From Paramagnetospirillum caucaseum (lineage in GTDB: Bacteria > Pseudomonadota > Alphaproteobacteria > Rhodospirillales > Magnetospirillaceae), in assembly GCF_000342045.1 (NCBI RefSeq), contig NZ_AONQ01000005.1, positions 1-64,000 of the forward strand: a DNA stretch of 64,000 nucleotides, read 5' to 3'. The notes below the pieces were generated by a model that was not told the DNA's origin, did not search any database, and saw nothing but the letters and a program-made list of their open reading frames with translations. The translations under genes and the position numbers were made by a program. Position 1 is the stretch's first letter; each line of letters starts with the position of its first letter. Positions 50,140 to 63,736 of this stretch are shown here, piece by piece.

Positions 50140-50339
50140 TCCTCCAGACTCCTCGGCTGACGCGGATTGACTTCCACCGCCCGCCCCGGGGGCAGGCGCA
50201 GGAACCCGGCCGACACCCCATGGGCGGAAACCGCCACCAGGCGCGCCAGCACCTCGATGACGACGGCATCCGACCCGTCTCCACCCTCGGCGGCGATCCG
50301 CCGCGCCATGGCGATGATGGCTTCCGAGCGGCCGTTCAT
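50136..50339 (-). CDS. Small phage protein between methyltransferase genes
   Basis: The 67-residue protein (MNGRSEAIIAMARRIAAEGG and a basic middle) overlaps both neighbouring genes by four bases, which supports its reality. It has no recognisable domain. It may be a small regulator or accessory of the adjacent methyltransferases, but that is only positional. Confidence 0.55.
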   Translation of the reverse strand: MNGRSEAIIAMARRIAAEGGDGSDAVVIEVLARLVAVSAHGVSAGFLRLPPGRAVEVNPRQPRSLEE

Positions 50340-52096
50340 TCCGCCGCCTCGCGCCGCAGGGCCATCTCGGGAACATTGGCGCCGACCAGGGCGGCGGCCA
50401 TGGGCGGGCAGACGCTGTTGCCGGCCATGCGGACCTGGGCGCGCTTGGACAGCGGCTTACCGTTGTGCTCGAGGTCGATGATGTAGCTGTCGGGGAAGCC
50501 CTGGGCGCGGAACAGCTCGCGGGGCGTCAGCATGCGCAGGCCGAGATCGGACAGGACGAAGGGCTCGCCCTCCACCATGACGGTGACCAGACCGAAGCGC
50601 GGCAGGGCGGTGACGGTGTGCAGCGGCTCGCCGCACTCCTGCCCATGCTCGGCGGCACCGTAATACTTGGTCAGGAAGGCCGCCACCAATCCGGCATGCT
50701 GGCCGCTGGCGGTCACCGTCTTGATCGGGTCATCCAGATCGCCGTTCCCGCCATCGGCGGCCGAGGAATAGAAGTGGGTCAGGTGGGCCGCGACCACGGA
50801 ATGATGATCAGCGGTGGTCACCGTGCCGATGGGCTGCTCCACGCCGTGGCCGACCACGCCGCCATAGTGCTTGGCCAGGAAGGCGGCGACAAGGGCATGC
50901 TTGCCGCCGCCGGCAACTACGGTTCCCAGCGGCCTTTCGATATCCAGAGCCCTGGGCGCCTGCCCCTCACGCTCACCATATCCGGTCTGCACCAGGGTGG
51001 CGGCGACAAGTCCGACCTTATCCACGCCCACCAAGGTCGGAGCCGGCGCATCGCATTCCGCGCCAACGCTCCTGCCCTGGAACCGGGTGAGATGCGCCGC
51101 GACAAGTACCCGGTCGGCCTTGGCCGTGACGGTGCCCATGGGCTTGTCGGCGGGGCGGGGCGGCGACTGGGCAGCGCGGCCGCCGCAGCCGGTCAGCACC
51201 GGCGAGACCAGCAGGTGCTCGGCCTTGGTGCAGATGGTGGACAACGGATCACTCACGTCCCGCACCTTGCCGGAATCACCGTGCCCGGTATGGCCGATGC
51301 GCACGATGAACGGCTTGGCCGCATTGACCACGTAGCGCATGGCGCCGGTGGCCACCCGCCGGCAGGTGGCATCAGCCAGCGGACGGGCGCGCTCGAAGAT
51401 GGACGGACAATGCAAGGACCAGTCGATGATGTCGGCGGCGCTGCGCCAGCGCTGCGGGCGGCCCGGCCCGTGGGTCGGTTCCGGCCAGACGATGGGCTCG
51501 CCGTCGCAGCGCGCGATCAGGAACAGCCGCTTGCGGATGGTCGGCGCGCCATAGTCGCAGGCCCGCAGTTCGCGCCACTGGACGCGATAGCCCCGGCGCT
51601 TCAGGTCCCCCACCCACTTGGCGAAGGTCTCGCCGCGCCGATCAGGGCACGGCGTGCCATCCTCCAGCAACGGCCCCCAGGTCTGGAACTCCTCGACGTT
51701 CTCCAGGAAGATCACCCGGGGCCGGATGTGGCGAGGCAGCCGGGCATAGCCCACCACCACCCAGGCCAGATCGCGGATATTCTTCTCACGCGGCTTGCCG
51801 CCCTTGGCCTTGGAAAAATGTTTGCAGTCGGGTGAAAACCACGCCGCGCCGATGGGTCGTCCGGCGGCGACCTCGGACGGGTCGGCCTGCCAGATGTTCT
51901 GGCACCAGTGGCGGGTCTCCGGGTGGTTGGCCATGTGCATGGCCACCGCCTCGGGGTCGTGGTTGAGCGCTTCCTCGGGCGAGCGCCCCAGGGCCTCGCG
52001 GATTCCTTCGCACGAGCCACCGCCACCGGCGAAGCCGACCACGATGATCTCGCCGGATCGGGACGGGACGGCGGGGGCGGGAAACAGGATGGACAT
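50336..52096 (-). CDS. DNA cytosine-5 methyltransferase with repeat-containing recognition region
   Basis: The 586-residue protein has C5-methyltransferase motif I (VVGFAGGGGSCEGI, about 20-33), catalytic Cys91 in SPDCKHFSKAKGG, motif VI ENVEEF (about 132) and a C-terminal motif X region (RMAGNSVCPPMAAALVGAN). Between about 285 and 500 lie seven imperfect repeats of the form P-x2-T-V-x6-LVAA-x-L-x3-YG, apparently forming an enlarged target-recognition region. It should methylate cytosine in phage or host DNA. Overlaps of four bases link it to the small gene downstream. Confidence 0.9.
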   Translation of the reverse strand: MSILFPAPAVPSRSGEIIVVGFAGGGGSCEGIREALGRSPEEALNHDPEAVAMHMANHPETRHWCQNIWQADPSEVAAGRPIGAAWFSPDCKHFSKAKGGKPREKNIRDLAWVVVGYARLPRHIRPRVIFLENVEEFQTWGPLLEDGTPCPDRRGETFAKWVGDLKRRGYRVQWRELRACDYGAPTIRKRLFLIARCDGEPIVWPEPTHGPGRPQRWRSAADIIDWSLHCPSIFERARPLADATCRRVATGAMRYVVNAAKPFIVRIGHTGHGDSGKVRDVSDPLSTICTKAEHLLVSPVLTGCGGRAAQSPPRPADKPMGTVTAKADRVLVAAHLTRFQGRSVGAECDAPAPTLVGVDKVGLVAATLVQTGYGEREGQAPRALDIERPLGTVVAGGGKHALVAAFLAKHYGGVVGHGVEQPIGTVTTADHHSVVAAHLTHFYSSAADGGNGDLDDPIKTVTASGQHAGLVAAFLTKYYGAAEHGQECGEPLHTVTALPRFGLVTVMVEGEPFVLSDLGLRMLTPRELFRAQGFPDSYIIDLEHNGKPLSKRAQVRMAGNSVCPPMAAALVGANVPEMALRREAAE

Positions 52097-52097
52097 G

Positions 52098-52277
52098 TCA
52101 GTCGAGCCCCCCGAACGGGTTGGGCAGGCCGACGCCGATCTCGTCATTGACGCGATCGCCCCGCCGCAGCCACCAGACCAGGGCGCCAACCACGAACAGG
52201 GCGGCGGCCATGCCGAGAATCGCCAGCACCAGGGCGATCAGGCCAACCGCATCCATCAGCCATGACAATGTGTCCAT
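52098..52277 (-). CDS. Small single-membrane-span phage protein
   Basis: This 59-residue protein starts MDTLSWLMDAVGLIALVLAI, has a long hydrophobic span (about 11-37), then WWLRRGDRVNDE and a C-terminal GLPNPFGGLD. The start at 52277 is preceded by AAAAGGGGAC, a good ribosome binding site. It lies between the cytosine methyltransferase and a winged-helix gene in the early leftward operon. The function is unknown; superinfection or membrane-interference roles are possible. Confidence 0.65.
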   Translation of the reverse strand: MDTLSWLMDAVGLIALVLAILGMAAALFVVGALVWWLRRGDRVNDEIGVGLPNPFGGLD

Positions 52278-55995: not shown

Positions 55996-56442
55996 ATGAG
56001 CAACATCGAGAGCCCCGAGCGCCGTCTTCCCGCCATCGGCGCGCCGTTTGGCGGCGGTTACTTCGTCGATACCGTCACCAACAACGGCCAGACCTACGCC
56101 CTGGTGGTGGCGCCGAAGTCGGAAGACGCGGGCGGCAAGACCTGGAAGCAGGCCCAGAAGCTGGCCGCGGCCTGCCGCGCCGGCGGCCACGAGGACTGGC
56201 AGCTTCCCAGCCGCCGCGATGCCCTGGCCATGGCGGAAAAGCTGCTGCCGACCGGCAGCCAGACGCCGGAAGCCTTCCGCGAGGGTGGAGAGCAGGCCCT
56301 TGAGCGATCGTGGTACTGGACCGCCGCCGAGGTTGACGGCGAACCCGGCTACGCCTGGCTGCAGTACTTCGGCTACGGCTGCCAGTCCAGCAGCAAGGGC
56401 CTCAGGGACCGGGTCCGAGCCGTCCGCAAACATCCCCTTTAA
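55996..56442 (+). CDS. DGR target protein 1 (C-type-lectin-like, DUF1566-type)
   Basis: The 148-residue protein has no signal peptide. A beta-rich first half is followed by a C-type-lectin-like part: GGHEDWQLPSRRDALAMA, SWYWTAAEVDGEPGYAWLQ and the C-terminal RVRAVR. This pattern (WxLP...YWT...AW...VRAVR) resembles the DUF1566/Lcl family, a known DGR target fold. Its last 32 codons contain the variable repeat VR1: ten codons (residues 124-138) correspond to AAC codons in the template and all differ from it. It should be a ligand-binding protein whose surface loop is diversified. The ligand and location in the phage life cycle are unknown. Confidence 0.88.
   Translation: MSNIESPERRLPAIGAPFGGGYFVDTVTNNGQTYALVVAPKSEDAGGKTWKQAQKLAAACRAGGHEDWQLPSRRDALAMAEKLLPTGSQTPEAFREGGEQALERSWYWTAAEVDGEPGYAWLQYFGYGCQSSSKGLRDRVRAVRKHPL
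56345..56428 (+). repeat. DGR variable repeat VR1
   Basis: This is an 84-nt repeat aligned without gaps to the template repeat at 59447-59530. It differs at 16 positions, and every one is an A in the template. The first 20 bases and the last 19 (CGGGTCCGAGCCGTCCGCA) are identical in all three copies. The repeat ends the coding region of target 1. Confidence 0.95.
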
Positions 56443-56455
56443 CTCTCACCCCTTT

Positions 56456-56477
56456 CCCAGCCGCTTCGGCGGCTGGG
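56456..56477 (+). other. Hairpin downstream of VR1 (DGR target recognition element)
   Basis: A perfect 9-bp stem CCCAGCCGC / GCGGCTGGG with a TTCG loop begins 27 bases after VR1. A matching hairpin follows VR2 but not the template. DGR target sites in phage BPP-1 need a similar hairpin/cruciform downstream of VR. It is not followed by a T-run, so it is unlikely to be an ordinary terminator. Confidence 0.75.
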
Positions 56478-56510
56478 GCTGATGTCAGAGGAAACGAGGA
56501 CGAGACGGCA

Positions 56511-56825
56511 ATGACTACGGACAAGCCCGGAGCCGGGCACAACAGCGGCGACGACGAGCAACAGACCACCCGGATCGGCGGCATCGCCGCCGAGGCGCTG
56601 CGGTCCTTCATCGAGCGCATCGAACGGCTGCATGAGGAAAAGAAGGCCTTGGAGGGCGACCTGAAGGACGTCTACGCCCAGTGCAAGTCCCAGGGATTCG
56701 ACACCAAGATCATCAAGCGCCTGATCGCCTTGCGGCGCATCGACCCGCAAGCCCGCGAAGAGGGAGCCCAACTCCTCGCGCTCTATGCCGCCGCCATCGG
56801 CGAGCAATTGCCCCTCAACCTCTGA
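56511..56825 (+). CDS. GapR-like DUF2312 DNA-binding protein
   Basis: The 104-residue protein matches the DUF2312/GapR family: GIAAEALRSFIERIERLHEE, DLKDVYAQCKSQGFDTKIIK and RLIALRRIDPQAREE. GapR of Caulobacter binds overtwisted AT-rich DNA ahead of replication and transcription. Phage copies may act on phage replication or host nucleoid. It lies between the first DGR target and the HD hydrolase gene. Confidence 0.85.
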   Translation: MTTDKPGAGHNSGDDEQQTTRIGGIAAEALRSFIERIERLHEEKKALEGDLKDVYAQCKSQGFDTKIIKRLIALRRIDPQAREEGAQLLALYAAAIGEQLPLNL

Positions 56826-56952
56826 CCGGATGCCGCGTCGGCCGGGCCAACGCACCTTGCCGTAGGAGTGACTACCCACGGTGCAAACCGCCCCCCCTCA
56901 AAGCCCATCACGGGCAACCCGGCCGACGCCGCTGCTTTTCGAAGGATCACCC

Positions 56953-57609
56953 ATGACCACCCAGATCACCCCTGCCAACACCGGAGCCCTGTTTCTGCAA
57001 CAGGCGTCGGGCGGCATGTTCCGCCTGGACTCGCCGCTGATGGAATCGGTCCACTGGCCAGACATCGCCGAATGTCTGGCCAAGGAACCGCGCTTCGCCG
57101 GGGCAACCCGCAATCTGGTGTTCAGCGTGGCACAGCATTGCGATCTTGTCGGCCGCATCGCCGAGGGCCTGGCCCGAAAGCGCCTGACCTGCGACGAGCA
57201 GATTCGCCGCGCCGCCCTGGCCGGGCACATCCACGACGCCCACGAATTCGCCACCCGCGATATTCCGACGCCGACCAAGGACATGCTGGCCCGCCTGGCC
57301 GGCACCGACGTGGTCCGCCAGCTGCAAGCCCATATCGATGCCGCCCTTTATCCCGCCGCCGGCCTGCCCTGGCCCCTGCCGGCGACCCTGGCCGCCATCG
57401 TCGCCGAGGCCGACGCCATCGCCTGCGCCACCGAAAAACGCGACCTGATGGCCGAGCCCATCCTTCCCTGGGGTGGGCACCTTCCTGCAGCACTGCCCGA
57501 GCGCCTGACCCCCTGGCCGCCCCGCTTCGTCGAAATCATCGACCGCTGGTGGAGGCGCTTTCAGGTCCTGACCGGCGACCGCCCCACCACCACCATCGGA
57601 GCGCACTGA
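56953..57609 (+). CDS. HD-domain phosphohydrolase
   Basis: The 218-residue protein contains an HD metal site: His62 ([10 protein letters not shown]), His94-Asp95 ([16 protein letters not shown]) and a later conserved Asp region ([12 protein letters not shown]). This resembles YfbR/5'-nucleotidase-like HD enzymes that hydrolyse deoxynucleoside monophosphates. In a phage it probably shapes the nucleotide pool during replication. It precedes ssb by one base. Confidence 0.85.
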
Positions 57610-57610
57610 C

Positions 57611-58054
57611 ATGGCCGGTAGCGTCAACAAGGTCATTCTCGTCGGAAATCTGGGCCGCGATCCTGAGATTCGCACCGCCCAGAACGGCGACAAGGTCGTC
57701 AATCTGAACATCGCCACCTCCGAAACCTGGAAGGACCGGAGCACCGGCGAGCGCAAGGAAAAGACCGAGTGGCACCGGGTGGTGATCTTCAATCCCAATC
57801 TGGCCGATGTGGCCGAGCGATTCTTGCGCAAGGGCTCCAGCGTCTATGTTGAAGGCGCACTCCAGACTCGCAAGTGGACCGACCAGGCGGGCCAGGAAAA
57901 GTATACCACCGAGGTGGTGATCGGTCGCTTCAAGGGCGTCCTGACCCTGCTGGGCAAGGCCGAGGGCGGCCAACAGAGCGGGGGGAATGGCAGCAGCAAC
58001 GGCGGACAATCCTGGGAGCCGCCCGCCGGCCTCGACGACGAAATCCCGTTCTAA
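57611..58054 (+). CDS. ssb: Single-stranded DNA-binding protein
   Basis: The 147-residue protein starts [20 protein letters not shown] and has the OB-fold landmarks [20 protein letters not shown] and [21 protein letters not shown] Gly/Ser/Gln-rich linker leads to the acidic tip LDDEIPF, which recruits replication proteins. It serves phage DNA replication or recombination, and could bind DGR cDNA intermediates, which is only a suggestion. The next gene starts two bases after its stop codon. Confidence 0.96.
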
Positions 58055-58056
58055 AA

Positions 58057-58263
58057 ATGACCACCGGCCCCACCACCGTCACCATCCAGATCGAAAGCTG
58101 CCAGGGCTGCGATGCCCTGGTCACCGATCCGGTCTATCTCGCCACCTATGCCCGCTGCCGGGAAGCCGGAAGGCGGATCATCACCGCCTGGTGGGATCGC
58201 CGCACTCCGACACCTCCCTGGTGTCCCGCGAAATCGAACTCAGAGGAGAGCAACCATGCCTGA
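58057..58263 (+). CDS. Small protein upstream of DGR target 2
   Basis: This 68-residue protein (MTTGPTTVTIQIESCQGCDA, then a basic region) has a CxxC pair near residues 15-18 and a later Cys (PPWCPAK), a possible small metal site. Its end overlaps the start of target 2 by eight bases, so translation may be coupled. No family is recognised. Confidence 0.6.
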   Translation: MTTGPTTVTIQIESCQGCDALVTDPVYLATYARCREAGRRIITAWWDRRTPTPPWCPAKSNSEESNHA

Positions 58264-58792
58264 TACCGCGCCCAACCCCGGGCTCACCATCCCCGTTCCC
58301 GCCATCGGCACCCCCATAGCCGGCGGTTTCTTCGGCGGCGTGTCCCGCGACGGCACGTGGATCATCGTGTCGCCCAAGGCCGAGGGCGAAACCGTCCTGG
58401 CCTGGAAGACCACCATGACCGCCAGCCCCGGCGCGCTGTCGTTCGTCGATGGCCTCGCCAACACCCGCGACATCGCCGACGCCGACCACCCGGCCGCCGC
58501 CTTCTGCGCCGCCCTGCGCATCGGCGGGTACGACGACTGGCACCTGGGCAGCCTCGACGACATGCAGACCCTGATGCGCAACCTGATGCCGCTGTCCGGC
58601 GGCAATCCCGCACAGACGGCGGTCGAGGCGTTCCAGGAGGGCGGCGCCGAGGCCTTCGAGGCGGCGTGGCACTGGACCAGCACCCAGGACAGCCCCGGCT
58701 ACGCCTGGCTGCAGGACTTCGGCTACGGCCTCCAGTACTACACCAAGTACGACAGACACCGGGTCCGAGCCGTCCGCAAATGTCTTCTTTAG
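58256..58792 (+). CDS. DGR target protein 2 (C-type-lectin-like, DUF1566-type)
   Basis: This 178-residue paralogue of target 1 has the same layout: no signal peptide, GGYDDWHLGSLDDMQTLMRN, AAWHWTSTQDSPGYAWLQ and a C-terminal RVRAVR. Residues 154-168 correspond to the template AAC codons and all ten differ from the template. It overlaps a small gene at its start and is followed by a GC-rich hairpin, then avd. The two targets keep different frameworks but identical VR flanks, as expected when one template serves two genes. Confidence 0.88.
   Translation: MPDTAPNPGLTIPVPAIGTPIAGGFFGGVSRDGTWIIVSPKAEGETVLAWKTTMTASPGALSFVDGLANTRDIADADHPAAAFCAALRIGGYDDWHLGSLDDMQTLMRNLMPLSGGNPAQTAVEAFQEGGAEAFEAAWHWTSTQDSPGYAWLQDFGYGLQYYTKYDRHRVRAVRKCLL
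58695..58778 (+). repeat. DGR variable repeat VR2
   Basis: The 84-nt repeat is colinear with the template at 59447-59530 and differs at 12 positions, all template adenines. It shares the GGC-TAC pair at the third and fourth variable-region codons with VR1. The 3' flank diverges from the template immediately after CCGTCCGCA. Confidence 0.95.
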
Positions 58793-58808
58793 CCCTTTAA
58801 CCCTTTAT

Positions 58809-58828
58809 CCGGCCGCTTCGGCGGCCGG
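58809..58828 (+). other. Hairpin downstream of VR2 (DGR target recognition element)
   Basis: An 8-bp stem CCGGCCGC / GCGGCCGG with a TTCG loop starts 30 bases after VR2, nearly the same spacing as the VR1 hairpin. Loop sequence and stem end (CGC TTCG GCG) are identical in both. It probably forms the cruciform that marks VR for retrohoming. Confidence 0.75.
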
Positions 58829-58851
58829 GTGATGCCTGGAGGAGGTTTTGC

Positions 58852-59205
58852 ATGGCGCTGGCCACCGAACTGCCCATCTACCGCGAGACATACGCCCTGG
58901 TCCAGCTTCTGGCGAAGCTGACGGGACAGTATCCCCGCAACTACCGGCAGGTTCTGGCCCGCGAGATCCTGACCGAGGGCCAGCAGATGGCGGTGGAGAT
59001 CTTCCGCGCCAACTGCGTCACCGGCCCCGCCAAGGCGCCGCACATCGAGAGGATGCGCGAACACCTGGAGGTGCTGCGCTTGCAGCTGCGCCTGTCCAAG
59101 GACCTTCACCTGATCTCCCCCAAGCAATTCGGGGACACGGTGGAACTGACGACCGCCGTCGGCAAGCAGGCGACGGCATGGCTGAAATACGCGAGGAGCG
59201 CCTGA
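58852..59205 (+). CDS. avd: DGR accessory variability protein (Avd)
   Basis: The 117-residue, mostly helical protein (LPIYRETYALVQLLAKLTGQ, LAREILTEGQQMAVEIFRAN, HIERMREHLEVLRLQLRLSK) matches the four-helix-bundle Avd / 23S-intervening-sequence family. It lies directly before the template repeat and reverse transcriptase. Avd pentamers bind the RT and template RNA and are required for mutagenic cDNA synthesis in phage BPP-1. Its TGA overlaps an ATG (TGATG) of the frame that continues into the RT. Confidence 0.92.
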   Translation: MALATELPIYRETYALVQLLAKLTGQYPRNYRQVLAREILTEGQQMAVEIFRANCVTGPAKAPHIERMREHLEVLRLQLRLSKDLHLISPKQFGDTVELTTAVGKQATAWLKYARSA

Positions 59206-59531
59206 TGCCCGAAGGTCAAGGCCTTCGCGCCCGTGCGCATCATTTGGTCGGGGTAGCGGCCCCTCCCGATGCATACGGGGTCGCTCCAGGCGCCGATGGG
59301 ATACGGCGGGTGCTCCCCCGCGCGTCCCGGCGCAGCTCGGCCGGCGTCGATGACCCGGCGGCGAAGGCCGCCAGCCCGATGGATTGGACGCCTGCGCGTC
59401 CGGGTCAATCGCCGGCCCGGCCTGTACACCCCCGACAGGACTTGGTCCGGCTACGCCTGGCTGCAGAACTTCAACAACGGCAACCAGAACAACAACAAGA
59501 ACAACAGAAACCGGGTCCGAGCCGTCCGCAC
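59206..59531 (+). ncRNA. Predicted DGR template RNA region
   Basis: The 326-base interval between avd and the RT start contains the template repeat at its 3' end and a GC-rich 240-base leader. In known DGRs the avd-TR-RT spacer RNA folds and is used as template and primer for cDNA synthesis. The interval is also open in the RT frame: an ATG at 59205 with AGGAG upstream could start translation through it. Its third-position GC is lower than that of sure genes, so non-coding RNA is at least equally likely. Confidence 0.65.
59447..59530 (+). repeat. DGR template repeat (TR)
   Basis: The 84-nt donor repeat would encode NFNNGNQNNNKNNRNR in the VR frame, with ten AAC codons. Adenine mutagenesis of AAC gives NNC codons, which can encode 15 amino acids and never a stop. 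The repeat ends two bases before the RT ATG. No TTCG hairpin follows it, in contrast to both VRs, as expected for the non-mutated donor. Confidence 0.95.
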
Positions 59532-60659
59532 ATGATCACGCAACAGCCGTCAGACATCACCGTGTCCCAGCTTTTCGAGGCCTATTACGACTGCCGGCGC
59601 CACAAGCGCAACACGGCCTCCGCCCTGGAATTCGAGATGGCGCTGGAAAACAACCTGATGGACCTGCTGGCCGAGCTGCAGGCCGGCACCTGGATGCCGG
59701 GACCGGCGACCGTCTTCGCCATCACCCGGCCCCGCCCGCGCGAGGTGTGGGCCGCCCAGTTCCGCGACCGCATCGTCCACCACCTGGTCTACCGCGCCGT
59801 CAACCCGCTGTTCGAGCCGGCGTTCATCGCCGATTCCTGCGCCTGCATCAAGGGGCGCGGCACGCTGTACGGCGCCGAGCGCCTGCACCGCCACCTACGC
59901 TCGGCCACCGAGAACTGGAGCAAGCCGGCCTTCTATCTGAAAGCCGACATCGCCAATTTCTTCGGATCGATCCGGCACGCCGATCTGTTCGCCATGCTGG
60001 CCCGGAGGATCACCGACCCCACCATGCTCGATCTGTGCCGCAAGCTGGTGTTCCAGGACGTGCGCCAGGGCGCCATCGTCAAGGACGGCGCCGGAACCCT
60101 GGCCCTGGTGCCGCCGCACAAAAGCCTGTTTCAGGTCCCGCCCGGCATCGGCCTGCCCATCGGCAACCTCAGCAGCCAATTCTTCGCCAACGTCTACCTG
60201 GACGGCTTGGATCAGACGATCAAGCGCCGCCTCGGCATGCGCCACTACGTCCGCTATGTCGACGACATGGTGATGATCCACCCCGAGCCCAAGGCGCTGC
60301 TGGCCGCCGCCGATGCCATCCGGGACCACCTGGCCGGAATCGGCCTGAAGCTGGCCGAGCACAAGACCTTCGTGGCGCCGGTCGCCAAGGGCGTCGATTT
60401 CGTCGGCCACGTCATCCGCCCGCACCGCCGCCAGGGCCGCCCCAGAACCCACCGCGCAGCCCTGCGCCGGCTGATGGAGATCCCGGCCGAGGACTTCATG
60501 CCGTCCTGCAACAGCTATCTCGGCCTGTTCCGCCACGGCGGCAGCCGCAACCAGATCATCGCACTCGCCCGGATCGCTCTGCGGCGCCGCCACTGGGTAG
60601 CCGCCGACCTGACCAAGGTGGGCGGCCGGCGCATCCACACACCGAGGACATCATCATGA
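59532..60659 (+). CDS. DGR reverse transcriptase
   Basis: The 375-residue protein is a group II-intron-like RT of the DGR clade. Motif 3 is LKADIANFFGSI (Asp139), motif 4 is GLPIGNLSSQFFANVYLD with the DGR-specific SQ in place of QG (215-216), and motif 5 is YVRYVDDMVMIH with the catalytic YVDD (242-245). Further C-terminal motifs are GLKLAEHKTF and GVDFVGHVIRP. It copies the template RNA with errors at adenines. The ATG at 59532 lacks a clear Shine-Dalgarno site; a frame-continuous ATG at 59205 has one. Confidence 0.96.
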   Translation: MITQQPSDITVSQLFEAYYDCRRHKRNTASALEFEMALENNLMDLLAELQAGTWMPGPATVFAITRPRPREVWAAQFRDRIVHHLVYRAVNPLFEPAFIADSCACIKGRGTLYGAERLHRHLRSATENWSKPAFYLKADIANFFGSIRHADLFAMLARRITDPTMLDLCRKLVFQDVRQGAIVKDGAGTLALVPPHKSLFQVPPGIGLPIGNLSSQFFANVYLDGLDQTIKRRLGMRHYVRYVDDMVMIHPEPKALLAAADAIRDHLAGIGLKLAEHKTFVAPVAKGVDFVGHVIRPHRRQGRPRTHRAALRRLMEIPAEDFMPSCNSYLGLFRHGGSRNQIIALARIALRRRHWVAADLTKVGGRRIHTPRTSS

Positions 60660-60819: not shown

Positions 60820-61323
60820 ATGAAGGCAATCACCCTCCACCAGCCCTACGCTTCGCTGATCGCCATCGGTGCGAAGCCATTCGAGACTCGCAGCTTCCCG
60901 CCACCGGCCAAGCTGATCGGCCAACGGATCGCCATCCATGCGGCGAAGGCCGACCACTCCAATCGCCTCTTGCTCACCCTGGGGCATGAGGCGATCAGCG
61001 CCATCATCGACGCCCTTGAGGTTGGAGGCCAGGGCCATAGGGTCTCGTGGTCGCAGCTTCCGCACGGCGCAGTCGTCTGCACGGCGGTGATGGCGGGGGC
61101 CTACCACGTTTTCCCGTGTCTGGATGGCGGGATCAAGCTCCTCGCCCCGGTGGGCATGGGAAAGCCCCTACCTGCCGAGATGGCCCACCACACCGACCAC
61201 TTCGGCGATTACAGCCCCGGTCGCTGGTGCTGGCAGCTGACCGACGTGCAGGTGCTGCCCGAGCCGGTTCCCGCCAAGGGGAAGCAGGGCTGGTGGGAAT
61301 GGGAGGGCCTCGCCAATGGCTGA
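60820..61323 (+). CDS. ASCH-domain protein
   Basis: The 167-residue protein has an ASCH/PUA-like fold signature: MKAITLHQPYASLIAIGAKP, FETRSFPPP, GQRIAIHAAK and a C-terminal RWCWQLTDVQVLPEPVPAKG. ASCH domains bind RNA or modified nucleobases; phage copies are of uncertain role. It overlaps the DUF5131 gene start by eight bases, suggesting coupled translation. Confidence 0.85.
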   Translation: MKAITLHQPYASLIAIGAKPFETRSFPPPAKLIGQRIAIHAAKADHSNRLLLTLGHEAISAIIDALEVGGQGHRVSWSQLPHGAVVCTAVMAGAYHVFPCLDGGIKLLAPVGMGKPLPAEMAHHTDHFGDYSPGRWCWQLTDVQVLPEPVPAKGKQGWWEWEGLANG

Positions 61324-62473
61324 CCGCACCAAAATCGAATGGACCGATGCCACCTGGAACGCCCTACGCGGCTGCTCCAAGGTCTCGGCCGGCTGTACCA
61401 ACTGCTATGCCGAGGGTATGGCCGGGCGCTTCTCCGACCCTGGGCAATGGGGCTACGGCATCGCCACCCGCGAGCCGGAAAGCCTGGAACGCTATATCCT
61501 GCGGGGGCGCTGGACCGGAAAAGTGGTGCTGGACGAAAAGGCCCTGTTCAAGCCGCTGCACTGGAAGAAGCCACGCCGCATCTTCGTCACCAGTATCGGC
61601 GATCCATTCCACCCGGCGGTGACGGACGACATGTTGGACCGCCTGTTCGCGGTCATGGCGCTGGCACCCCAGCATACCTTCCAGCTGCTGACCAAACGGC
61701 CTGAGCGGATGCGGGCATATCTTGACGGCGCAGCAACTCCGATCCGAATTGCGTCGGCCTCGGTCAGCATGGCCGTTGGCGATCTGCGCTGGTCGAACCC
61801 TTGCGGAACGGATGGCTGGTGGCCGCTTCCCAACGTCTGGCTGGGCGTCTCGGTCGAAAACCAGCCGGCGGCAAACGAGCGCATTCCGCATCTGCTGGCG
61901 ACCCCGGCCACCATGCGGTTCCTGTCGTGCGAGCCGTTACTGGGGCCTCTGGACTTGGAGCGGTGGCTGCGCATCGACTGGCAGTGTCAGGGGTGCAAGG
62001 GGTTCTTTCGGGGAAGACACCGCAAAATCTGCCCAGACTGTGGGCGCGAAGAATTCTGGTCAGGAAGCCACGCTTTCAACGGGCGCAGCATGAAACCCAA
62101 TCCCGTGGTTCCGCCCCAAGGTGGACGCGGCATAGACTGGGTGATCGTCGGCGGAGAGAGCGGCCCCAAGGCCCGGCCCATGCACCCGGACTGGGCGATA
62201 GCCCTGCGCGACCAGTGCTCCGCCGCTGGCGTGCCATTCTTTTTCAAGCAATGGGGCGAATGGGGACCTTATGACGAGGACCACTGCCCTGCCACGGCCG
62301 ATATCGATCCATATGACGCCGACGAGCGCGGTATCTGGATGACCCCGGATGGGGGGCGCGCCAATTTCGGAACACGCTTCAATCGCAACGCCCAGATGAT
62401 CCGCATCGGCAAGAAGGCCGCCGGGCGACGGATCGACGGCCGGGAACACCTCGACGTCCCCATGGACCGCTGA
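61316..62473 (+). CDS. DUF5131 (phage Gp37/Gp68-type) protein
   Basis: The 385-residue protein has the family signature KIEWTDATWNALRGCSKVSA with Cys20, Cys27 and Cys30 (GCSKVSAGCTNCYAEGMAGR), later ILRGRWTGKVVLDEKALFKP, TSIGDPFHP and GGESGPKARPMHPDW. An insertion near 222-245 (CQGCKGFFRGRH...CPDCG) looks like an extra zinc ribbon. The cysteine triplet and barrel-like pattern suggest a radical-SAM-like or metal-dependent enzyme. The biochemical role is not established. Confidence 0.85.
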   Translation: MADRTKIEWTDATWNALRGCSKVSAGCTNCYAEGMAGRFSDPGQWGYGIATREPESLERYILRGRWTGKVVLDEKALFKPLHWKKPRRIFVTSIGDPFHPAVTDDMLDRLFAVMALAPQHTFQLLTKRPERMRAYLDGAATPIRIASASVSMAVGDLRWSNPCGTDGWWPLPNVWLGVSVENQPAANERIPHLLATPATMRFLSCEPLLGPLDLERWLRIDWQCQGCKGFFRGRHRKICPDCGREEFWSGSHAFNGRSMKPNPVVPPQGGRGIDWVIVGGESGPKARPMHPDWAIALRDQCSAAGVPFFFKQWGEWGPYDEDHCPATADIDPYDADERGIWMTPDGGRANFGTRFNRNAQMIRIGKKAAGRRIDGREHLDVPMDR

Positions 62474-62476
62474 CCC

Positions 62477-63736
62477 ATGGCTTCCGCCCCCGACCTCTTC
62501 GCCGGTAGCCAGCGCCTGCAGATGACCGAGAGCATCGAACTGACGGTGCAGTCGATGCAGGCCTATGCCCACGATCATGACCACTGGGGCATGGCGTGGT
62601 CGGGCGGCAAGGATTCCAGCGCCACCGTGACGCTGATCTGCTGGCTGATCGACACCGGCCGCATTCCGGCGCCGAGGTCGTTCACCGTGTTCTACGCCGA
62701 CACCCGGATGGAACTGACACCGTTGGCCATCGCCGCCCTGCAGATCATGGACGAGATGCGGGACAGGGGCATCGAGGTCCACGTGGTCCGCGCCCCGCTC
62801 GACAAACGGTACTTCGTTTACATCCTCGGCCGCGGCGTGCCGCCGCCCAACAACAACACGCTGCGCTGGTGTACCCGCCAGATCAAGATCGACCCCATGG
62901 GAGAAGCGGTGGCGCGGAAGCTCGACGAGATCGAGCGGAACCACAACGGCGGCCCCGGCTTGGACGGCGCCGATGGCCCGAAGCCGTTCCTGATGATCAC
63001 CGGCGTCCGCCAGGGCGAATCCGCCATGCGCGACCGCCGCATCGAGATGAGCTGCAGCAAGGACGGCGCCGAGTGCGGCCAAGGCTGGTACCAGAAGACG
63101 CTGCCCGAGGCCAAGGGCGTGCGGGGACGCATCGCCACCCTGGCGCCGCTGCTCCACTGGCGGGTCTGCCATGTGTGGGAGTGGCTGAAGCATTGGGCGC
63201 CCCAGCCACAGTTCGGCGACTGGTCCACCGCCATGATCGCCGACGCCTATGGCGGTGACGAGGCGGAGGAGATCAACGCCCGCACCGGCTGCATCGGTTG
63301 CCCCCTGGCCGCCAAGGACATGGCGCTGGATACCATCCTGCGCAATCCGGCATGGGCCTATCTGTCGCCGCTGAAGGGCCTGAAGCCGCTCTACCGCGAA
63401 CTGCGTCTGGCCAGGAACCGTCTGCGCCAGCCGGGCGGTGAACGGCGCCAGGACGGCACCCTGGCCAAGAACCAGCAGCGCATGGGGCCGCTGACGTTCG
63501 AGGCCCGGCTGATGGGCCTCGAACGCGTGCTGTCCATCCAGGCCGAGGTAAACACCGCCGCCGTCCGGCTCGGCCGCCCGCGCCTCGACCTGCTCGACGC
63601 CGAAGAGGAGGCCCGCATCCGCGATCTGATCGCCGGCAAGACCTGGCCGGATGGCTGGGCCGGAGATGAACCTACCGCCGATACCCCGCTGCCGGCCTAT
63701 TTCTCCGACGGCACCATCCAGCAGCTTCTGGTGTAG
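62477..63736 (+). CDS. PAPS-reductase / DndC-like PP-loop protein
   Basis: The 419-residue protein contains the PP-loop AWSGGKDSSATVTLICWLID (motif SGGKDSS at 42-48) and TLRWCTRQIKIDPMG, with later cysteines in RTGCIGCPLAAKDMA. This belongs to the phosphoadenosine-phosphosulfate reductase superfamily, which includes DndC of DNA phosphorothioation and many phage proteins of unknown substrate. Without dndA/B/D/E neighbours, a phosphorothioation role is not supported; nucleotide or tRNA sulfur chemistry is possible. Confidence 0.85.
   Translation: MASAPDLFAGSQRLQMTESIELTVQSMQAYAHDHDHWGMAWSGGKDSSATVTLICWLIDTGRIPAPRSFTVFYADTRMELTPLAIAALQIMDEMRDRGIEVHVVRAPLDKRYFVYILGRGVPPPNNNTLRWCTRQIKIDPMGEAVARKLDEIERNHNGGPGLDGADGPKPFLMITGVRQGESAMRDRRIEMSCSKDGAECGQGWYQKTLPEAKGVRGRIATLAPLLHWRVCHVWEWLKHWAPQPQFGDWSTAMIADAYGGDEAEEINARTGCIGCPLAAKDMALDTILRNPAWAYLSPLKGLKPLYRELRLARNRLRQPGGERRQDGTLAKNQQRMGPLTFEARLMGLERVLSIQAEVNTAAVRLGRPRLDLLDAEEEARIRDLIAGKTWPDGWAGDEPTADTPLPAYFSDGTIQQLLV

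What the first reader, a model, noticed from the sequence alone, without database searches (positions are those of the whole stretch)
55996..60659. Complete diversity-generating retroelement with two target genes served by one template
The sequence shows two 84-nt variable repeats (56345-56428, 58695-58778) colinear with one template (59447-59530). All 16 and 12 differences are at template adenines. An avd gene lies before the template and an RT with the DGR motifs LSSQ and YVDD lies after it. DGRs of this makeup are established (phage BPP-1 and others). The two-target arrangement with intervening gapR-like, HD and ssb genes is the main candidate for the exciting system here.
Basis: partly seen in the sequence, partly recalled or inferred. 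Interest (0 to 1): 0.95.

Follow-up and report, generated by a model that had tools for sequence, protein, structure and literature searches.

The report
Two-target mutating element in a prophage
A dormant phage in a Magnetospirillum-like bacterium carries a known kind of gene-diversifying element that appears to rewrite two related genes from one template, and beside the template lies a folded RNA on the opposite side from where the textbook element carries its own.

Summary
Two 84-nt variable repeats (VRs) match one template repeat (TR); all 16 and all 12 differences fall on template adenines. Avd and a diversity-generating-retroelement (DGR) reverse transcriptase (RT) flank the TR. It is a real DGR in a prophage, with a DNA hairpin after each VR. 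"Two targets, one template" is ordinary here: 93 of 116 loci of this RT clade scanned show two or three VR clusters, and both DGRs of M. magneticum AMB-1 were listed with two VRs in 2012. gapR, HD and ssb look like bystander phage genes.

The avd-TR spacer (59203-59443) is a covarying structured RNA, a divergent relative of Rfam RT-15 (RF03018). In 51 of 51 sources where my model found it, it ends within 25 nt of a TR start; TR then abuts the RT gene. BPP-1 and six related phage DGRs show the mirror geometry: TR close to avd, the gap between TR and RT (a known RNA family in BPP-1 only). I infer that the RT-15-like RNA is the 5' protein-binding module of this clade's DGR RNA (about 0.6, untested). 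Known kind; interesting RNA architecture.

The parts
55996..56442 (+). target gene T1, 148 aa, Lcl C-terminal domain
   Evidence: Pfam PF07603 E 8e-11; phrog_4245
56345..56428 (+). variable repeat VR1
   Evidence: 16 of 16 differences at template A
56456..56477 (+). hairpin after VR1, 9-bp stem, TTCG loop
   Evidence: DNA fold z -3.7; hairpins after 77 of 188 VR windows vs 2.2 expected
58256..58792 (+). target gene T2, 178 aa, Lcl C-terminal domain
   Evidence: Pfam PF07603 E 3e-10; model pLDDT 91.4, best PDB match 8q4e Lcl C-terminal domain E 1.4e-4
58695..58778 (+). variable repeat VR2
   Evidence: 12 of 12 differences at template A
58809..58828 (+). hairpin after VR2, 8-bp stem, TTCG loop
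   Evidence: DNA fold z -3.0
58852..59205 (+). avd, accessory variability determinant, 117 aa
   Evidence: Pfam bAvd PF22296 E 5e-12; phrog_3206 E 2.7e-26
59203..59443 (+). structured RNA between avd and TR, divergent RT-15 (RF03018) relative; inferred 5' module of the DGR RNA
   Evidence: 18 of 53 pairs with two-sided changes; Rfam RT-15 at 59196-59365, 77.7 bits, E 6e-18, below gathering 82; model R1 189 bits, but the window is in its training set
59447..59530 (+). template repeat TR (homology with VR2 runs to 59535 at one non-A mismatch)
59532..60659 (+). DGR reverse transcriptase, 375 aa; one base lies between TR and its start codon
   Evidence: phrog_1423 E 9e-105; 8ub7 E 1e-40; IGNLSSQ and YVDD invariant
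56511..56825 (+). GapR-like DNA-binding protein, bystander
   Evidence: Pfam PF10073 E 1e-28
56953..57609 (+). HD-type deoxynucleoside monophosphatase, bystander
   Evidence: phrog_318 E 7e-34; Pfam YfbR-like below cut-off
57611..58054 (+). single-strand DNA-binding protein, bystander
   Evidence: Pfam PF00436 E 1e-36

Best explanation
A prophage-borne DGR of intact anatomy. A transcript carrying the structured avd-TR spacer RNA followed by the TR is copied by the RT with Avd; template adenines are miscopied and the cDNA replaces the VR of either target. The DNA hairpin after each VR marks it as a recipient, and its absence after the TR leaves the template untouched. Both targets are small Lcl-C-terminal-domain proteins, probably ligand-binding, varied at their C-terminal VR. 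Shown here: anatomy, adenine specificity, RNA covariation and geometry, hairpin asymmetry. Inferred: that it is active, that RNA and TR share one transcript, that the RT-15-like RNA is the RT/Avd-binding 5' module, and what the targets bind. The confidence is for the DGR reading; the RNA role alone is about 0.6.
For: TR/VR statistics and controls. RT, Avd and target families. Target model. Hairpins after 77 of 188 VR windows against 2.2 expected and after 2 of 90 TR windows. T2 and its orthologues in two sister genomes differ at 17 of 439 and 25 of 439 sites outside the VR but at 18 of 95 and 14 of 95 in the VR stretch, tail included. The window's TR lacks one AAC unit present in three sister TRs and both its VRs have that short length, as expected if both were rewritten after the loss. 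RNA: 98.4% of cells paired, 18 pairs with two-sided changes against 5.3 in shuffles and 1-5 in slid versions; 51 of 51 hits end within 25 nt of a TR start; 8 RNAs in 60 relatives match the 8 DGR RTs of 76% identity or more.
Against: No population or expression data, so activity is not shown. The window RNA scores below Rfam's gathering score (77.7 vs 82), although 8 of 8 chosen relatives and 2 of 2 annotated phages exceed it. The covariation count uses a structure derived from the same alignment. No consistent pairing between the RNA and the TR 3' end that would explain priming (40 loci, mean z +0.35). The hairpin loops TTCG/CGAA do not fit the GRNA loop reported for phage DGRs (PMC3240598, passages). 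Only 77 of 188 VR windows have a perfect hairpin.
Confidence: 0.92

Rival explanations
1. The DGR is intact but no longer active; the VRs are frozen products of past rewriting.
For: Activity cannot be tested from one genome. In two relatives (L024, L028) both VRs are 3 nt longer than the current TR, so rewriting is not constant.
Against: DGR and catalytic motifs intact; no non-adenine difference in either 84-nt VR; both VRs share the window's short TR length.
Confidence: 0.15
2. The structured spacer is not a protein-binding module but a roadblock that ends cDNA synthesis at the 5' edge of TR, or a leader that controls RT translation.
For: It sits at the 5' edge of TR, where an RT running 3' to 5' must stop; BPP-1 cDNA synthesis is ended by a motif in avd (PMC12875486, passage). 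Only one base lies between TR and the RT start codon.
Against: A 53-pair multi-helix fold with invariant loop sequence is more than a stop seems to need. In 5 loci with an insert between TR and RT the RNA stays joined to TR, not to the RT (L038 and L039 come from one assembly and count as one event). I found no other conserved noncoding stretch that could recruit the RT.
Confidence: 0.3
3. gapR, HD and ssb are functional parts of the two-target system.
For: They lie between the targets on the same strand.
Against: Among 7 relative loci with the DGR, GapR and HD matched only in L030 and SSB only in L025, E cut-off 1e-4 (the loci are 7 to 20 kb, so more distant copies would be missed).
Confidence: 0.03
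4. Ordinary duplicated gene ends or gene conversion, not a DGR.
For: The targets are paralogues.
Against: 28 of 28 differences at template A, base control, DGR-type RT and Avd.
Confidence: 0.01

Closest known systems
The two DGRs of Magnetospirillum magneticum AMB-1 (Schillinger 2012, PMC3521204, Table 2)
   Same: Each listed there with two VRs. Relative G009, probably AMB-1 (from its 4,967,148-base size as I recall it, not looked up), holds two DGRs with RTs 95% and 78-80% identical, two tandem targets each, the same spacer RNA and the same TR-RT abutment.
   Different: The window has T1 3.1 kb from TR with phage genes between the targets, one AAC unit less in TR than G009's closer copy, and a longer insert in the RNA.
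Bordetella phage BPP-1 DGR
   Same: Order VR, avd, TR, RT. A-specific VR changes, target fold and hairpin after VR are as published (hairpin: PMC3240598, passages).
   Different: BPP-1 TR abuts avd and 144 nt, matching Rfam RF03022 Phage_DGR, lie between TR and RT; here the RNA lies between avd and TR, and TR abuts the RT.
Rfam RF03018 RT-15 RNA
   Same: Match over all 192 positions; same place between avd and TR in 8 of 8 chosen relatives, and beside avd and RT in 2 of 2 annotated phages.
   Different: Window copy scores 77.7, below gathering 82. One search of held papers found none using the names RT-15 RNA, RF03018 or RF03022.

Membership tests
Diversity-generating retroelement | TR/VR pair differing only or nearly only at template adenines | tested here: met
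   16/16 and 12/12; base control
Diversity-generating retroelement | RT of the DGR group with intact catalytic motif | tested here: met
   8ub7 E 1e-40, phrog_1423, IGNLSSQ and YVDD invariant in 8
Diversity-generating retroelement | Avd accessory protein | tested here: met
   Pfam bAvd above cut-off, phrog_3206; NCBIfam DivGenRetAVD below its cut-off, 53 vs 80 bits; no PDB sequence match
Diversity-generating retroelement | Target of C-type-lectin-type fold with VR at its C-terminus | tested here: inconclusive
   VR at the C-terminus met. T2 model matches the Lcl C-terminal domain (E 1.4e-4); matches to C-type lectins proper are not significant (E 0.9 and up). Depositors call similar Magia targets lectin-fold. 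T1 by Pfam only
Diversity-generating retroelement | Observed mutagenic retrohoming | not testable with these tools
   needs culture and sequencing
BPP-1-type DGR | Structured noncoding RNA between TR and RT | tested here: not met
   one base between TR and RT start; TR end to RT residue 14 median 29 nt in 107 loci vs 149-228 in BPP-1 and six related phages
BPP-1-type DGR | Hairpin after VR, 7-10-bp stem with GRNA loop (PMC3240598) | tested here: inconclusive
   stems of 9 and 8 bp fit, loops TTCG/CGAA do not fit GRNA
Multi-VR DGR (PMC3521204) | Two or more paralogous targets matching one TR | tested here: met
Rfam RT-15 RNA | Score at or above gathering (82 bits) | tested here: not met
   window 77.7 bits, E 6e-18, all 192 positions; 8 of 8 chosen relatives above it. 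So described as a divergent relative, not as a member

The most novel reading that the evidence does not exclude
This DGR clade carries its RT/Avd-binding RNA scaffold on the 5' side of the template, the mirror image of BPP-1: the RT-15 family is the 5' half of a DGR guide RNA whose 3' half is the template itself. If so, the internal-adenine priming known for BPP-1's 3' spacer cannot work in the same way here, and the clade must start cDNA differently.
Probability: 0.5. Interest if true: 0.7.

Novelty: new member of a known kind. Interest (0 to 1): 0.45.

Why it matters
As a two-target DGR it adds one more to a known list. The useful part is the RNA: an Rfam family known by name only (RT-15) gets a precise place, joined to the template of a DGR clade whose carriers, by record title, include Magnetospirillum, Burkholderia, Comamonas and Pseudomonas and phages, on the opposite side from the BPP-1 spacer RNA. 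That makes a mechanistic question testable: must the RNA that recruits the RT lie 3' of the template, and what primes the cDNA when it does not?

Tried and rejected
Two targets as the novelty: rejected. gapR, HD and ssb as system parts: rejected. A third VR elsewhere in the genome: none found by an 18-base pattern or by T2 protein. A 3' spacer hidden in the RT gene: the 62 nt after TR, folded as DNA, fold no better than shuffles (z +0.9; not tested as RNA), and five loci have other DNA there; but RT codons 8-16 are the least synonymously variable 9-codon window in 13 loci (0.087 vs 0.32 overall), which stays unexplained. Priming by pairing of the spacer RNA with the TR 3' end: no signal (40 loci, mean z +0.35; for one, L072, a wrong stretch was taken). 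RF03022 in 398 genomes of the phylum: nothing, and no positive control rang, so uninformative; the six BPP-1-type phages gave no Rfam match at E up to 0.01, so RF03022 was seen in BPP-1 only. Spacer as a small gene: indels not in threes and covariation speak against it. Literature: 7 searches were answered. Weinberg 2017 and Handa 2025 are not held and were not seen, so I cannot say that an RT-15/DGR link is unpublished.
Full report
Observation. TR 59447-59530 and VR1 56345-56428 differ at 16 sites, all template A; TR and VR2 58695-58778 differ at 12, all template A; none of the 55 non-A positions differs. No further copy exists in the window, and an 18-base core pattern occurs three times in the whole genome. 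A control over 60 RT loci, allowing mismatches at one base only, gave 105 diagonals for A, 7 for G, 1 for T, 0 for C. A search of the genome with T2 finds only T2 and T1.

Genes. T1 and T2 carry the Lcl C-terminal domain; avd and RT are clear family members. The AlphaFold model of T2 (38 aligned homologues, mean pLDDT 91.4) is closest to the solved Legionella Lcl C-terminal domain (8q4e, E 1.4e-4); matches to C-type lectins proper are not significant (E 0.9 and up), so the lectin-type fold is likely but not shown. Among predicted phage proteins similar folds occur in long proteins, one named tail fiber protein and one collagen repeat, and in small DUF1566 proteins. T1 was not modelled.

Setting. 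The element lies in a prophage: tail genes, major head protein, portal, terminase and DnaB on the minus strand between 27.9 and 49.6 kb, a repressor within 53.4-54.6 kb, and an integrase just past the window at contig position 64381-65439, followed by a biotin carboxylase gene. IMG/VR holds a 38.8-kb viral contig with an RT 100% identical (L064). The targets sit between repressor and integrase, not among the tail genes, so whether they are virion proteins is open.

Two targets are the rule in this clade. Of 116 loci scanned, duplicates included, 72 had two VR clusters, 21 three, 13 one and 10 none. Third clusters were not checked one by one and some (such as in L072, L103 and L137) are spurious. 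Four of the ten zeros (L038, L039, L042, L119) have the TR away from the RT and do carry two or three VRs; in the other six the RT starts within 570 nt of the contig start. Schillinger 2012 (sections 13 and 14 read) lists 24 multi-VR DGRs, among them both of M. magneticum AMB-1, and names a group whose TR overlaps the RT gene. Targets of a two-target locus in Thiohalocapsa were seen diversified in nature (PMC10907252, passages). [quoted passage not shown]

Signs that both VRs were rewritten. Between T2 and its orthologues in L024 and L025, 17 of 439 and 25 of 439 sites differ outside the VR and 18 of 95 and 14 of 95 in the VR stretch, which here includes a short tail beyond the 84 nt. The window's TR has one AAC unit less than the TRs of G016, G009a and G012a (L024, L025, L033); of eight aligned TRs only G009b shares the short form. 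Both window VRs have the short length, whereas both VRs of L024 and of L028 (G009b) are 3 nt longer than their TR. The simplest reading is that both window VRs were rewritten after the template shortened; independent loss is not excluded.

Hairpins. Perfect hairpins of at least 7 bp follow 77 of 188 distinct VR windows (2.2 expected from shuffles) but 2 of 90 TR windows, mostly starting 18-32 nt after the repeat. In the window they are 9 and 8 bp with a TTCG loop. Stem length and distance fit the target hairpins of phage DGRs, the GRNA loop does not (PMC3240598, passages).

The spacer RNA. The avd-TR spacer of the window is more alike than four-fold sites of RT in 12 of 12 comparisons with relatives, and than those of Avd in 9 of 11 (not in L024 and L033; L067 lacks a full avd). 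In 19 aligned loci (A3) RNAalifold gives 53 pairs; 98.4% of cells pair, and 18 pairs show two-sided changes against 5.3 in shuffles and 1-5 in slid versions. The structure came from the same alignment, which favours it in this count. Independent support is Rfam: RT-15 (RF03018) matches over all 192 positions at 77.7 bits (gathering 82) in the window, above gathering in 8 of 8 chosen relatives and in phages Magia and phPA-G; no Rfam family reaches gathering in the window itself. Model R1, built from A3, hit 51 of 63 further sources at E up to 1e-3, and all 51 hits end within 25 nt of a TR start (L037 and L076 were in its training set, L075 repeats L076, and a few other sources are near-copies). 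Of the 12 without such a hit, five lack a detected avd (four begin near the RT), three have a weaker hit at the same place, and four have distant RTs of 38-44% identity. In 60 relatives R1 found 8 places, beside the 8 DGR RTs of 76% identity or more and nowhere else (run with stricter filters). RT-15 was found in 4 of 337 genomes of the class, one over the cut-off, and in 3 of 398 of the phylum, two over it, the own genome counted in both. All three over-cut-off hits lie beside avd and a DGR RT; the two weak ones (25-27 bits) do not.

Mirror geometry. In 107 RT loci (three repeats left out, six skipped for want of a TR) the TR ends a median 29 nt before RT residue 14, within 60 nt in 98. From the last aligned avd base to TR is 162-310 nt, median 196, in 105 loci, and 312 to 329 in L042 and L119. 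In BPP-1 and six phages picked among its RT relatives TR starts 0-52 nt after avd and ends 149-228 nt before the same RT residue. In two of the six, avd was taken from a gene annotated only as hypothetical or four-helix-bundle protein, and in four the TR or the gap is covered by an annotated gene, so 'noncoding' is my reading there. In BPP-1 the gap is Rfam RF03022 Phage_DGR; this spacer is reported to recruit RT-Avd and to hold the priming adenine (PMC12875486, passages). In L038, L039, L042 and L119 a gene-sized insert, and in L101 about 270 nt, separate TR from RT, yet RNA and TR stay joined.

Mechanism. Shown: the anatomy, the adenine specificity, the RNA fold by covariation, its position. 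Inferred: RNA and TR form one transcript; Avd and RT bind the RNA; the RT copies TR and stops at the RNA; the cDNA enters either VR, marked by its hairpin. How cDNA is primed is unknown; pairing of the RNA with the TR 3' end showed no signal.

Verdict. Real, complete, and of a known kind; two targets are ordinary for this clade. The RNA arrangement is worth a specialist's attention, with the caution that the papers most likely to mention RT-15 could not be read.

Noticed in passing
window 59553-59579 (RT codons 8-16): Least synonymously variable 9-codon stretch of the RT gene in 13 loci (0.087 vs 0.32 overall), 23-49 nt after TR; unexplained.
   Followed up: partly
L038, L039, L042, L119, L101: DNA inserted between TR and RT (in L038, L042 and L119 it reads like a DNA methyltransferase gene by eye, not searched), leaving RNA and TR joined.
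   Followed up: partly
L145:8806-10089, L159:2746-4023, L162:2746-4011: Annotated RT genes start inside the spacer RNA (L145) or upstream of TR (L159, L162); the start codons look called too far upstream.
   Followed up: no
G009 and G012: Each genome carries two DGRs of this clade, with RTs 93-95% and 78% identical to the window's.
   Followed up: partly
window 61316-63736 and 50336-52189: DUF5131 protein and a phage-type PAPS reductase downstream of the RT, and a cytosine methylase upstream.
   Followed up: no
L034, L037, L043, L045, L046, L050, L072, L114: VRs 2.9-7.5 kb from TR, so distant targets recur in the clade.
   Followed up: no
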